A stretch of DNA of 30,891 nucleotides from the IMG/VR virus record IMGVR_UViG_3300017775_000004, positions 1 to 30,891 of that record. One strand, 5' to 3'. Numbering within the stretch: the first letter of the stretch is position 1; every line of letters starts with the position of its first letter. This DNA comes from a virus. Made by a program: the position numbers and the translations under genes. The notes under the pieces were generated by a model. That model was given only the letters and a program-made list of their open reading frames with translations. It did no database searches and had not been told where the DNA came from. Shown piece after piece: positions 22,208 through 26,707 of this stretch.

Positions 22208-22489
22208 CTAGACCGCGACGCTCTCCGAGGTCACGGTCCCGACGGCCGCCGAGCGCCCGGTCTCCACGAGGGCCGCGTGCACGGCGCGCAGTGCCCGCGT
22301 GGCGGCGTCGTCCGCCGCGCGGGCCTCGACGGTCAGGATGACGTCGACCTCACCCGTCTGGAGGTTCCCGCCGACCGCCGGCCCGAGGATGTCCGGCCGG
22401 CTGACCAGCGCCTCGTAGAGGTCCTCGAGGTCATCGACGCGGGGATCCTTCAGCCCGGTCGCGATCACGCTGTAGGTGAACTCGGCCAT
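22208..22489 (-). CDS. unknown partner of the HicA-like protein
   Basis: A 93-residue acidic protein. The predicted order is strand (FTYSVIATG), helix (DDLEDLYEALVSRPDIL), strands (GPAVGGNL; GEVDVILTVEAR), helix (DDAATRALRAVHAALVETG) and strand (AAVGTVTSESVAV), a ferredoxin-like layout. It lies three bases after the HicA-like gene on the same strand. It lacks the HicB signature (a GCxxxG-type strand and C-terminal DNA-binding domain). It may be an antitoxin of a new type or an unrelated accessory protein. Function unknown. Confidence 0.7.
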   Translation of the reverse strand: MAEFTYSVIATGLKDPRVDDLEDLYEALVSRPDILGPAVGGNLQTGEVDVILTVEARAADDAATRALRAVHAALVETGRSAAVGTVTSESVAV

Positions 22490-22492
22490 CCT

Positions 22493-22690
22493 CTACCCCT
22501 TATACCCGTGTCGGCGCAGCTGCGCGAGAGTGTTCGCCATCGAGCGGTGGTCGCTCGGCGTCCCTGGGATGTGGACCATCCCCACACCGTCGGGGGCGTA
22601 GGCGCGGTAGTGCCCGCTCTTGAGCTGATCGACTCGCCAGCCCTCGGACTGGAGCGACTTGACGAGGCGGCGGATCTCCTTGGTGGCCAT
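22493..22690 (-). CDS. HicA-like small protein
   Basis: A 65-residue protein resembling HicA mRNA interferases with a dsRBD-like fold. It has an N-terminal helix (KEIRRLVKSLQSEGWRV), then KSGHYRAYAPDG with the key His at 27, a strand (VGMVHIPGTPSDHRS) and a final helix (MANTLAQLRRHGYK). HicA proteins cleave mRNA and are normally held by HicB. Here no HicB is adjacent; a different 93-residue protein follows. The frame is open further upstream, but the ATG at 22690 fits the HicA length and lies six bases after TATAGT with a perfect -35, so the message is probably leaderless. Confidence 0.72.
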   Translation of the reverse strand: MATKEIRRLVKSLQSEGWRVDQLKSGHYRAYAPDGVGMVHIPGTPSDHRSMANTLAQLRRHGYKG

Positions 22691-22696
22691 GGGAAC

Positions 22697-22726
22697 ACTA
22701 TAAACGGTTTGACGGTCGCTTGTCAA
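22697..22726 (-). promoter_or_regulatory. promoter for the HicA-like gene, leaderless
   Basis: On the minus strand TTGACA (22726-22721), an 18-base spacer and TATAGT (22702-22697) make a near-consensus sigma-70 type promoter. Six bases, GTTCCC, separate the -10 box from the ATG at 22690. No Shine-Dalgarno is visible. Confidence 0.75.
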
Positions 22727-22746
22727 CGATGAGACGGATCGTTTAT
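22700..22746. promoter_or_regulatory. putative operator with nested inverted repeats
   Basis: An inner inverted repeat, TTGAC (22709-22713) and GTCAA (22722-22726) eight bases apart, covers both -35 boxes. An outer inverted repeat, ATAAACG (22700-22706) and CGTTTAT (22740-22746), overlaps both -10 regions. A dimeric regulator bound here could control both directions; the HTH protein encoded at 22776 is the nearest candidate. Confidence 0.5.
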
Positions 22747-22749
22747 CGT
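22720..22749 (+). promoter_or_regulatory. divergent promoter for the HTH gene
   Basis: TTGTCA (22720-22725), an 18-base spacer and TATCGT (22744-22749) point right. The -35 box is the same block of bases as that of the opposite promoter, since TTGTCAA is nearly its own complement. Unlike the HicA-like gene, this transcript has a leader with GAGGAGG (22764-22770) before the ATG. Confidence 0.55.
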
Positions 22750-22775: not shown

Positions 22776-23024
22776 ATGCCAGACCACAGCGGGCCGCTCG
22801 CCGAGGCCAAGAGAGCCCACGACGAGGCGTATGCGCGGGCCGGCGCCGCGGCGCGTGAGCTCGAGGAGGCGCGGCGCGCGCGCGATGAGGCGCGGTCCTT
22901 CATCCACACGGCGATGAAGTGCGCCCGTCAGGACGGGATGACCTGGACCCAGATCGGTGCGGCCATCGGCGTCAGCGCGCAGGCCGCATCGCAGATGTTC
23001 AAGCGCTACGCGGAAGGGCGCTAG
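22776..23024 (+). CDS. small HTH protein with N-terminal coiled coil
   Basis: An 82-residue protein. Residues 8-45 form a charged coiled coil (AHDEAYARAGAAARELEEAR). Residues 52-78 form a helix-turn-helix (GMTWTQIGAAIGVSAQAASQ MFKR read across the turn). It lies divergent from the HicA-like gene and shares its promoter region, so it is a candidate regulator of that pair. A strong Shine-Dalgarno supports ATG 22776. A long perfect hairpin follows its stop. Confidence 0.75.
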   Translation: MPDHSGPLAEAKRAHDEAYARAGAAARELEEARRARDEARSFIHTAMKCARQDGMTWTQIGAAIGVSAQAASQMFKRYAEGR

Positions 23025-23078: not shown

Positions 23079-23681
23079 TCAGACCGAGTCGAGGATCTCC
23101 CGGCGCTTCGACTCGAACTCGTCCGGTGAGATCAGGCCCTGGTCGAGCATCGCCTGGAGGCTGCGCAGGCGCTCGGGCGCGCCGGTCGGTCCGGCCGGGG
23201 CGTCGACGCGGGGAGGCCCGTCAGAGATCCGGCTCCGCACGTACTCGCCGATCTCGGCTACCCGCTCCTTGGGCATCACCTGCTTGATCACGGCCTTGTT
23301 GCCGGAGACGAAGATCACCAGCGACCCGCTCGTCATCTTGGTCTCGGTCTGGATCGAGCTGACCTTCGAGTAGGGGAAGTCCTCCTGTCGCGAGCGCGCC
23401 ATCCCCTTCTCGAAGAAGAAGAGCCGGCGCTCGGTGACGACGAGCAGCCCCTGGCGGCCGTCGTATCCGCCGGCGGCAAGGTTCAGGACCATCTCGCCTT
23501 CGGCGAGGAGCTCGTGCACCGCCTTCAGCTCCCGGCGTACGCCGATCGTGTGCCGCAGCTTCTGGCGCGCCAGCTCCCGAATCTCCGCGCTGAGCCCTTC
23601 ACCGATATCTGCCGGCTCGCCGTCGTCCAGCGGCACGGCGTCTTGGCTTTCGGTCTCGGACTTGCCTCTCCTGAACCCCAT
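23079..23681 (-). CDS. PH domain and SHOCT domain protein
   Basis: A 200-residue protein. Residues about 58-150 fit a bacterial PH domain (LAAGGYDGRQGLLVVTERRL FFFEKG across the core, then PYSKVSSIQTE and LVIFVSGNKAVIKQV). Residues 171-199 are a SHOCT domain (LRSLQAMLDQGLISPDEFES), a short module found at the C-terminus of many bacterial proteins and thought to mediate oligomerisation. The first 40 residues are charged and disordered. A GGGAGAGG ribosome site precedes the start. On the minus strand in the presumed lysogeny region, it may be expressed in the prophage. Function unknown; membrane-linked exclusion is one guess. Confidence 0.85.
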   Translation of the reverse strand: MGFRRGKSETESQDAVPLDDGEPADIGEGLSAEIRELARQKLRHTIGVRRELKAVHELLAEGEMVLNLAAGGYDGRQGLLVVTERRLFFFEKGMARSRQEDFPYSKVSSIQTETKMTSGSLVIFVSGNKAVIKQVMPKERVAEIGEYVRSRISDGPPRVDAPAGPTGAPERLRSLQAMLDQGLISPDEFESKRREILDSV

Positions 23682-23786: not shown

Positions 23787-24041
23787 ATGATCGACCCGGA
23801 GACCCTGGCCGGCTTGCCCATCGAGGCGCGCGAGCGGATCGCGTACCAGCTCATGGCGGATGCCGCCTACCAGGCGGCAGGTGTCCTCGGCCCTACGCAC
23901 CCGCACTCTTGCGCCCTGGACGAGATCGGCTCGCTGTACGATCAGCGACCTTCTCTCCGAGCTGTCGCGCCTTCCGGTTCGCCTTCACCGGATCGGTCGG
24001 GGAACTTGCCGATTCTTCGGTTGCTTCCACCTCTCGGATGA
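23787..24041 (+). CDS. small protein overlapping the repressor gene, uncertain
   Basis: An 84-residue frame with a good ribosome site (GGAGAGGAGG six bases before ATG). The first half looks like protein (LPIEARERIAYQLMADAAYQ). The second half is Ser/Pro/Arg-rich and overlaps the 3' end of the antisense repressor gene by about 149 bases, so its end may be unselected. It could be a gene truncated by rearrangement. No family recognised. Confidence 0.45.
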   Translation: MIDPETLAGLPIEARERIAYQLMADAAYQAAGVLGPTHPHSCALDEIGSLYDQRPSLRAVAPSGSPSPDRSGNLPILRLLPPLG

Positions 24042-24303
24042 TGTCGGCGGGGGTGCTCGCGTAGAGCACCAGCATCCGCAGGAGGGCGAGAGCGTCCGGC
24101 TTGTTCAGGCCGGACTCCCATCGGTAGATCTTGTTCTCGCTCTCGCCGATCGCCTCTCCCACGGCCCGCCGGGTTAGACCGGCGGCGTCGCGGCGTCGGC
24201 GCAGGACTGCTCCGAGGTCAGGCACAACCGCATAGTCAGATACGCCGATGCTAATCGCAACCGGCTGATCTGCCGATGTGGGGTTGACTATGTACATCTG
24301 CAT
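23893..24303 (-). CDS. putative CI-type repressor (HTH Cro/C1 family)
   Basis: A 136-residue protein. Residues 30-92 form a Cro/C1-type HTH (LGAVLRRRRDAAGLTRRAVG; GESENKIYRWESGLNKPDAL). The C-terminal 45 residues are basic and disordered. There is no LexA-like peptidase domain, so RecA-driven self-cleavage is unlikely. Its divergent position next to a Cro-like gene is the classic immunity arrangement. The start is uncertain: ATG 24303 or 24297 are possible and neither has a clear Shine-Dalgarno; the HTH is retained in both. Confidence 0.75.
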   Translation of the reverse strand: MQMYIVNPTSADQPVAISIGVSDYAVVPDLGAVLRRRRDAAGLTRRAVGEAIGESENKIYRWESGLNKPDALALLRMLVLYASTPADIIREVEATEESASSPTDPVKANRKARQLGEKVADRTASRSRPGRKSAGA

Positions 24304-24313
24304 ATGTCAGTCT
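24284..24313 (+). promoter_or_regulatory. possible leaderless promoter for the Cro-like gene
   Basis: TTGACT (24284-24289), an 18-base spacer and CAGTCT (24308-24313) precede the ATG at 24321 by seven bases. No Shine-Dalgarno is present. The -10 box is weak, so confidence is moderate. The interval also holds two small palindromes, ATGTACAT (24290-24297) and CATATG (24301-24306), possible operator half-sites. Confidence 0.45.
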
Positions 24314-24320
24314 GCCGCAC

Positions 24321-24569
24321 ATGACCACCGCAGAGCGCATCCGCGAGGCCCGAGAGGCGTGCGGACTCAGCCAGGCGAAGCTCGCCGCGCTGATCGACGT
24401 CTCCCCGGCGACCGTCTACCGCTGGGAAACGGGCAGGTCGGAGCCGCCGATCGGTTCGGCCGGTCAGATGGCCCGCGCCCTGGGTGTCGCTCTGGACTCG
24501 CTGTACGTCCACGAGCAGGACGCTTCCACACCCGCCGAGCCCGCTGGGAAAAACGCGGCGGCGGCATGA
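24321..24569 (+). CDS. Cro-like HTH protein
   Basis: An 82-residue protein with a complete XRE-type HTH over residues 1-65 (ERIREAREACGLSQAKLAAL; VSPATVYRWETGRSEPP; MARALGVALDSLYVHEQDA). It is divergent from the repressor gene and heads the rightward early operon, so it likely plays the Cro role. Its stop overlaps the next ATG. Confidence 0.8.
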   Translation: MTTAERIREAREACGLSQAKLAALIDVSPATVYRWETGRSEPPIGSAGQMARALGVALDSLYVHEQDASTPAEPAGKNAAAA

Positions 24570-25723: not shown

Positions 25724-26707
25724 ATGAGCACTGCACTCGCAACCGTGCCCGCTGCCCAGCCGGGCGCGATCACGGCCATCAAGCAGATGTCGCCGGAGCA
25801 GGTCGCGGTCATCAAGCAGACCGTGGCCCAGAACGCGACGGATGCTGAGCTGGCGATGTTCCTCGAGCTGGCGAACCGCTACCAGCTCGACCCGTTCGCC
25901 CGCGAGATCTGGTGCATCTGCGAGACCAAGAACGGCCAGCGCACCACGAACAGCGACGGCACCATGAAGCCGGCGCAGATCATGGCCTCGCGCGACGGCT
26001 ACCTGGCGATCGCCAACCGGCACCCGCAGTTCGACGGCATGGAGTCAGACGTCGTCTGCGAGGGCGACACGTTCATCCGCAAGGGTGGGCAGGTCGAGCA
26101 CTCCTACGGCGCCAAGCGCGGCGCGATCATCGGCGCCTACGCGCTGGTGTACCGCAAGGACCGCACCAGGCCGGCGTACTTCTTCGCCCAGTGGTCCGAG
26201 TACGGCGCCCGCAACGCCGGCAACTCCTGGTCGCCGTGGTCGAAGTACGCCTCGGCCATGAACATCAAGGTCGCCGAGGCGATGGCGCTCAAGCGCGCCT
26301 TCTCCATCTCGGGGCTGGTGACCGAGGAGGAGATGGGCATGACCGACGCGCCCGTCGGCGCCAACGCGCTCGCGCTCCAGGAAACGGCGTCCACGCTCCC
26401 GCCCTTGGCCGACGTCGAGGGCTTCGCGGCGCGTTACGAGGCCATCGTCGAGCACATCCGGGCTAAGGGCCTCGATGCCAAGACGGTCTGGGCGGAGGCA
26501 GGCGTCTCGGCGCAGCGCGAGCTCGATGACGACGAGGTCTACCGGCAGGCGCGCTCCGCTGTGGGCGACGACCCGGACGACGACCCGATCGACGGCCAGG
26601 CCGAGGTGGTCGACGAGCCCACCGGCGACGCCGCGGTGGCCGATCAGATCGGCGACGAGGTCTTCTCCGGCCGCGATGCCGACCCGGACGCGGGCGGCGC
26701 GGCGTGA
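25724..26707 (+). CDS. bet: Bet/RecT-type single-strand annealing protein
   Basis: A 327-residue recombinase that anneals complementary single strands. Residues about 20-205 match phage Bet proteins: MFLELANRYQLDPFAREIW, then AQIMASRDGYLAIANRHPQF, GAYALVYRKDRTRPAYFFAQ, and KYASAMNIKVAEAMALKRAF. The last 65 residues are strongly acidic and disordered, perhaps for binding host SSB. No partner exonuclease is evident next to it. ATG 25724 is two bases past the previous stop. Confidence 0.9.
   Translation: MSTALATVPAAQPGAITAIKQMSPEQVAVIKQTVAQNATDAELAMFLELANRYQLDPFAREIWCICETKNGQRTTNSDGTMKPAQIMASRDGYLAIANRHPQFDGMESDVVCEGDTFIRKGGQVEHSYGAKRGAIIGAYALVYRKDRTRPAYFFAQWSEYGARNAGNSWSPWSKYASAMNIKVAEAMALKRAFSISGLVTEEEMGMTDAPVGANALALQETASTLPPLADVEGFAARYEAIVEHIRAKGLDAKTVWAEAGVSAQRELDDDEVYRQARSAVGDDPDDDPIDGQAEVVDEPTGDAAVADQIGDEVFSGRDADPDAGGAA

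What the first reader, a model, noticed from the sequence alone, without database searches (positions are those of the whole stretch)
22208..22690. HicA-like gene paired with an unrecognised partner instead of HicB
The 65-residue protein has HicA-like length, the key His in KSGHYR and the terminal helix. The following gene, three bases away, encodes a 93-residue ferredoxin-like protein with no HicB signature. HicA toxins need an antitoxin, so the partner may be a new antitoxin type, or the HicA-like protein may be non-toxic. It sits in the presumed lysogeny region of a phage.
Basis: partly seen in the sequence, partly recalled or inferred. Interest (0 to 1): 0.72.

Follow-up and report, generated by a model that had tools for sequence, protein, structure and literature searches.

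The report
HicA-like gene with non-HicB partner
A phage carries a small HicA-fold protein, a toxin type normally held in check by HicB, next to an unrelated ferredoxin-like protein; the same two-gene pair recurs on plasmids, chromosomes and prophages of Actinomycetota, so it is probably an unrecognised variant of the HicA toxin-antitoxin kind, though toxicity is untested.

Summary
On the minus strand, 22690-22493 encodes a 65-residue HicA-like protein and 22489-22208, three bases on, a 93-residue partner. The first has the HicA fold (AlphaFold2, pLDDT 86.8; best Foldseek hits are solved HicA proteins) and its His27 aligns with the canonical HicA histidine. The partner is predicted beta-alpha-beta-beta-alpha-beta, with no similarity to HicB.

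The pair is real beyond this phage. An otherwise unrelated phage contig has the same HTH/HicA-like/partner cassette. I count 34 distinct pairs from actinobacterial plasmids, chromosomes and phages; outside the two phages the partner is usually fused to a helix-turn-helix, like HicB with a DNA-binding tail. In 396 genomes searched with the partner alone, 16 of 19 new hits had a HicA-like gene immediately upstream.

Best reading: a type II-like toxin-antitoxin module with a ferredoxin-like domain in place of HicB (about 55%). Main doubt: 12 of 31 aligned paired HicA-like proteins lack His27, although 11 of those have a histidine at position 42, probably nearby in the fold. A homologous pair in an M. 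abscessus prophage was already annotated toxin/antitoxin, untested. The 14 published HicA contexts do not name this partner. Toxicity and neutralisation are unshown.

The parts
22493..22690 (-). HicA-like protein, 65 aa (P0001), predicted dsRBD/HicA fold; His27 at the start of strand 2; conserved TPSDxR...N...LRR.G motif
22208..22489 (-). Partner, 93 aa (P0002), predicted beta-alpha-beta-beta-alpha-beta (ferredoxin-like); homologous to the N-terminal domain of HTH proteins that follow HicA-like genes elsewhere
22490..22497 (-). Stop of the HicA-like gene and a purine-rich ribosome-binding-like stretch (GGGGTAGAGG then ATG), suggesting translational coupling; similar layout in L001
   Evidence: sequence, (function is inference)
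22776..23024 (+). Divergent 82-aa HTH protein (P0006), conserved with the pair in L001 (55% identity)
22697..22726 (-). Sigma-70-like promoter of the pair, TTGACA-18-TATAGT (11 of 12), ending 6 bases before the ATG (probably leaderless mRNA)
   Evidence: leaderless start is inference
22720..22749 (+). Divergent promoter-like site of the HTH gene, TTGTCA-18-TATCGT (9 of 12), overlapping the first
22700..22746 (.). Inverted repeat ATAAACGGT...ATCGTTTAT (arms 22700-22708 and 22738-22746) over both -10 regions; GTAAAC...GTTTAC at nearly the same spacing in L001 (4946-4993): possible operator
   Evidence: sequence, (function is inference)

Best explanation
The two genes form a toxin-antitoxin-like module in which a HicA-fold ribonuclease-type protein is paired with a ferredoxin-like protein in place of HicB. 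Proposed working: the basic HicA-like protein would bind and cut RNA; the acidic partner, made from the same transcript and translated by coupling, would bind it and cover the RNA-binding face. In most relatives the partner carries its own C-terminal helix-turn-helix and would repress the operon. In this phage and its one close relative the partner lacks that part, and a divergent HTH protein next to overlapping promoters probably does the repression. Shown here: both genes, HicA fold prediction, recurrence of the pair, HTH fusion, divergent promoter-like sites. Inferred: RNA cleavage, toxicity, neutralisation by binding, repression, and any role in prophage maintenance or exclusion of other phages.
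For: HicA fold: top PDB matches 6g26_E/F, 1whz, 4c26, 5yrz. Sequence homology to a canonical HicA beside a real HicB. Partner homology to the fused domain is reciprocal: HMM of 8 fused domains hits P0002 at 4.6e-7 and the reverse search gives 8.5e-5; hhalign 94.1%, E 1.3e-7. Independent sample searched by partner alone: 16 of 19 new N-domain hits have the HicA-like gene directly upstream, HTH-only hits 0 of 3. In the same genomes the 17 strongest HicA-like hits all have the partner downstream (profile built from paired members). Ten plasmids carry both, 78-211 bases apart. The three-gene cassette is shared by two phages that otherwise share only one other gene. HicA-first gene order and the HTH-tailed partner match HicAB classes 1 and 3 (PMC10865869). 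Distances within the two families covary (r 0.58, 0 of 5000 permutations). Depositors call the homologous pair in prophiGD91-4 toxin/antitoxin.
Against: No toxicity, RNA cleavage or binding was tested. His27 is W/F/Y/I in 12 of 31 aligned distinct pairs. Many actinophages carry HicA-like relatives without this partner, and one orphan phage HicA-like protein was not toxic on overexpression (LeBron gp82, PMC13148394). The partner domain also occurs beside a VWA-like gene instead of HicA. Opposite charges are weak evidence, since the VWA-associated domains look acidic too. The covariation may reflect joint inheritance only.
Confidence: 0.55

Rival explanations
1. The pair is a regulatory unit of mobile elements, not a toxin-antitoxin system: the HicA-like protein is a nucleic-acid-binding protein without nuclease activity and the partner is a co-regulator or excisionase-like repressor.
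For: His27 is lost in 12 of 31 aligned pairs; the fused partners match PHROG 66 'excisionase and transcriptional regulator' (E down to 8.6e-8); one chromosomal pair lies between a phage lysis gene and tRNA genes; an orphan HicA-like phage protein was non-toxic (PMC13148394).
Against: 11 of the 12 members without His27 carry a His at position 42 and 0 of 19 His27 members do, as if a functional histidine was kept (largely one clade, so few independent events). PHROG 66 matches cover the HTH, not the ferredoxin-like domain.
Confidence: 0.3
2. The partner is a highly diverged HicB, so the module is a standard HicAB of class 1 or 3.
For: Same position, size and HTH-tailed variants as HicB in classes 1 and 3.
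Against: Profile comparison of the partner domain with five HicB proteins gives 0.3% probability; no Pfam HicB match; no HicB structure in the top 50 Foldseek matches; predicted E-H-E-E-H-E order differs from HicB.
Confidence: 0.08
3. The HicA-like protein is an ordinary orphan actinophage HicA-like gene (PHROG 2089) and the partner is an unrelated neighbour.
For: 194 phage records hold relatives, many annotated HicA-like toxin and, where examined, without this partner; P0002 itself has no close relative in the phage or plasmid collections.
Against: Cassette shared with an otherwise unrelated phage and 34 distinct pairs.
Confidence: 0.04

Closest known systems
HicAB toxin-antitoxin modules, classes 1 and 3 (Gerdes 2024, PMC10865869)
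   Same: HicA-fold gene first, small partner second; in relatives the partner has a C-terminal HTH as in class 3
   Different: Partner domain is ferredoxin-like and shows no sequence similarity to HicB; the 14 listed contexts name no such partner. The paper's supplementary table was not read
prophiGD91-4 gp36/gp35 (Mycobacterium abscessus prophage; PMC8092301)
   Same: HicA-like protein (A9 profile, 34 bits) followed by a partner with HTH (A12 profile, 104 bits), annotated toxin and antitoxin
   Different: Fused HTH; only a predicted TA system; the paper does not mention HicA
Orphan HicA-like genes of actinophages (PHROG 2089; e.g. CRB2 gp82, Eden gp27)
   Same: Same HicA-like family, about 38-46% identical, same TPSDxR motif
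   Different: No ferredoxin-like partner beside them
Adephagia gp91/gp90 HicAB (PMC11373665)
   Same: Phage-borne HicA-fold toxin with neutralising neighbour
   Different: Partner is a HicB and comes first (class 2); tested experimentally
Rv2016/Rv2017 (TASmania, PMC6504116)
   Same: HicA-domain protein with a non-HicB, HTH-containing neighbour
   Different: Partner named by HTH_3; rescue was very limited; no ferredoxin-like domain reported

Membership tests
[quoted passage not shown]
   AlphaFold2 pLDDT 86.8; Foldseek ranks 1-4 and 6 are HicA or HicA-like structures, TM 0.52-0.62, but E only 0.08-0.36
HicA fold/superfamily | Pfam PF07927 over its gathering score | tested here: not met
   15.9 bits against 27; L001 homologue 19.3 bits
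HicA fold/superfamily | catalytic histidine before strand 2 | tested here: met
   His27 in the window protein, aligned with canonical HicA; not conserved in all paired relatives
HicA mRNA interferase | ribonuclease activity and toxicity | not testable with these tools
   needs an expression assay
HicAB module | HicB partner (partial RNase H fold, HicB sequence) | tested here: not met
HicAB module | two-gene operon with tight spacing | tested here: met
   3-base gap in the window; elsewhere up to about 260 bases between matched parts
Type II toxin-antitoxin (general) | recurrent two-gene pair on mobile elements with patchy distribution | tested here: met
   plasmids, phages, a prophage, about 5% of 396 genomes
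Type II toxin-antitoxin (general) | antitoxin with DNA-binding domain and autoregulation | tested here: inconclusive
   HTH fused in most relatives, separate divergent gene here; autoregulation not tested
Type II toxin-antitoxin (general) | partner neutralises toxin by binding | not testable with these tools
   no complex prediction tool, no assay

The most novel reading that the evidence does not exclude
HicA-fold toxins of Actinomycetota have a second, unrelated antitoxin family (ferredoxin-like, usually HTH-tailed), and within it the active-site histidine has moved from the start of strand 2 to the end of strand 3.
Probability: 0.35. Interest if true: 0.72.

Novelty: new variant of a known kind. 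Interest (0 to 1): 0.58.

Why it matters
A 2009 survey stated that HicA and HicB occur strictly as a unique pair (PMC2701414), and the 14 HicA contexts listed in 2024 do not name this partner (PMC10865869). A recurrent HicA-fold gene with an unrelated ferredoxin-like partner would break that rule, give names to many 'hypothetical protein' pairs on actinobacterial plasmids and prophages, and offer a direct test of whether orphan phage 'HicA-like toxins' are toxins at all. The His27/His42 exchange gives a simple mutational test.

Tried and rejected
Close relatives of the partner in phages, plasmids, IMG/VR and GTDB by single-sequence or two-sequence patterns: only L001 found. PDB sequence search with the partner: nothing meaningful. 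Foldseek of the partner against viral models: generic ferredoxin-like folds. A search with PF09509 was a wrong guess and gave nothing. HTH-only matches to the partner profile were discarded as not informative. Locus L052 was rejected as a pair: it is a true HicA-HicB with HTH. Antisense ORFs over the cassette (for example 22277-22732 +) also match L001, but the substitution pattern by codon position fits the annotated frames. Charge complementarity was judged weak. The separate HTH and the fused HTH show only a short, weak match (28.7%), so descent of one from the other is not claimed.

Full report
Observation. The two genes are present, both on the minus strand: the HicA-like gene at 22690-22493 (65 aa) and its follower at 22489-22208 (93 aa), three bases apart. 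Upstream, a divergent 82-residue HTH gene starts at 22776. Between them lie two overlapping promoter-like sites (2 found, 0.0 expected from shuffles); the one for the pair ends six bases before the ATG, so the message is probably leaderless (inference). An inverted repeat, ATAAACGGT/ATCGTTTAT, covers both -10 regions; a similar GTAAAC/GTTTAC pair with nearly the same spacing is in the relative L001.

Fold and family of the first protein. Pfam HicA is hit below threshold, the PADLOC 'HicA-like' model at 2.6e-11, and PHROG 2089, of unknown function, at 1.7e-17. AlphaFold2 with 12 related sequences gives alpha-beta-beta-beta-alpha at pLDDT 86.8. Foldseek against the PDB puts HicA chains 6g26_E and 6g26_F first, then 1whz, 4c26 and, at rank 6, 5yrz, with TM-scores 0.52-0.62 but modest E-values of 0.08-0.36. 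The family profile aligns over its full length with a canonical HicA that has a HicB beside it (E 2.7e-9; HicB seen), His27 falling on the canonical histidine.

The partner. Alone it matches nothing in Pfam, PHROGs, NCBIfam or PADLOC. AlphaFold2 gives E-H-E-E-H-E at pLDDT 81.8 from two sequences; Foldseek finds generic ferredoxin-like folds and no HicB in the top 50. Comparison with five HicB proteins gives 0.3% probability.

Is the pair conserved? First, a 36-kb phage contig (L001/G001) has the same HTH/HicA-like/partner cassette (55%, 86% and 47% identity). Against the whole window only that cassette and one bPH-SHOCT gene are shared, so the cassette appears to travel apart from the rest of the phage. 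Second, a profile of the two phage partners hit the gene directly downstream of HicA-like genes in Streptomyces (E 6e-5). There the domain is N-terminal to a helix-turn-helix. The reverse profile, built without the phage partners, finds P0002 at 4.6e-7, and hhalign gives 94.1%. Third, an independent sample of 396 genomes searched with the partner profile alone gave 19 new hits covering the N-terminal domain, of which 16 have a HicA-like gene immediately upstream (one of them only a partial match); three HTH-only hits have none. In the same genomes the 17 strongest HicA-like hits all have the partner; this direction is biased because the HicA-like profile was built from paired members. Ten plasmids carry both genes 78-211 bases apart. 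In all I count 34 distinct pairs.

Limits of the association. The HicA-like family also exists without this partner: the mycobacteriophage, Gordonia and Microbacterium phage copies that I opened stand alone. The ferredoxin-like domain also occurs without HicA, as a short gene behind a VWA-like gene in nine actinobacterial loci (the VWA assignment is by eye).

The histidine. Of 31 aligned distinct pairs, 19 keep His27 and 12 have W, F, Y or I there. Of those 12, 11 carry a histidine at position 42; none of the 19 does. In the predicted fold position 27 precedes strand 2 and position 42 follows strand 3; in an antiparallel sheet these ends lie side by side (inference; no coordinates were measured). 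Most His42 members fall in one weakly supported clade (81/81), so the Fisher value of 1.4e-7 overstates the number of independent events. The exchange suggests that a histidine is still needed, which favours an enzyme over a plain RNA binder.

What it probably does. By architecture the module corresponds to HicAB classes 1 (no DNA-binding domain) and 3 (HTH tail) of Gerdes 2024 with the antitoxin domain replaced. I put the toxin-antitoxin reading at 55%. The main rival, a non-toxic regulatory pair of mobile elements, gets 30%, fed by the loss of His27 and by the non-toxic orphan LeBron gp82 (PMC13148394). On the other side, the HicA-like proteins of Adephagia (neutralised by its HicB) and Amelie are highly toxic (PMC11373665, PMC11797047).

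Prior knowledge. Makarova 2009 held HicA-HicB to be a strictly unique pair (PMC2701414). TASmania reported HicA-domain Rv2016 with HTH_3 protein Rv2017, toxic with very limited rescue (PMC6504116). In M. abscessus prophage prophiGD91-4 the homologous pair is annotated toxin and antitoxin, and the paper lists the prophage among those with TA systems transcribed against the early lytic genes (PMC8092301), without naming HicA or testing it. I found no description of the ferredoxin-like partner family; the literature held here is open-access only, and supplementary tables could not be read.

Verdict. A real, recurrent module and a new variant of a known kind. The decisive experiments are simple and were not available here.

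Noticed in passing
window 23079-23681: bPH_3 plus SHOCT domain gene next to the cassette is the only other gene shared with contig G001 (58% aa, at its other end, 34968-35612), so it may travel with the lysogeny region.
   Followed up: partly
L096-L104: A family of about 95-residue ferredoxin-like proteins related to the partner domain sits directly behind a VWA (CoxE-like, by eye) gene in several actinobacterial genomes.
   Followed up: partly
L163 6024-10576: A chromosomal pair lies between a phage endolysin/tape-measure module and tRNA-Asn/tRNA-Met, probably a prophage end.
   Followed up: partly
L105 2001-2424: A degenerate second copy of the pair (remnant of the HicA-like C-terminus and partial partner) in the genome that also has the intact pair L041.
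   Followed up: no
window 23893-24569: Two divergent Xre-type HTH genes (136 and 82 aa), probably repressor and Cro-like, with RecT at 25724: supports a temperate phage; no integrase was found or looked for specifically in the 30.9-kb fragment.
   Followed up: no
L150-L161: Weaker HicA-like matches with the TPSD motif, several inside long open frames (about 220-390 codons), without the partner; possible fused HicA-like domains.
   Followed up: no
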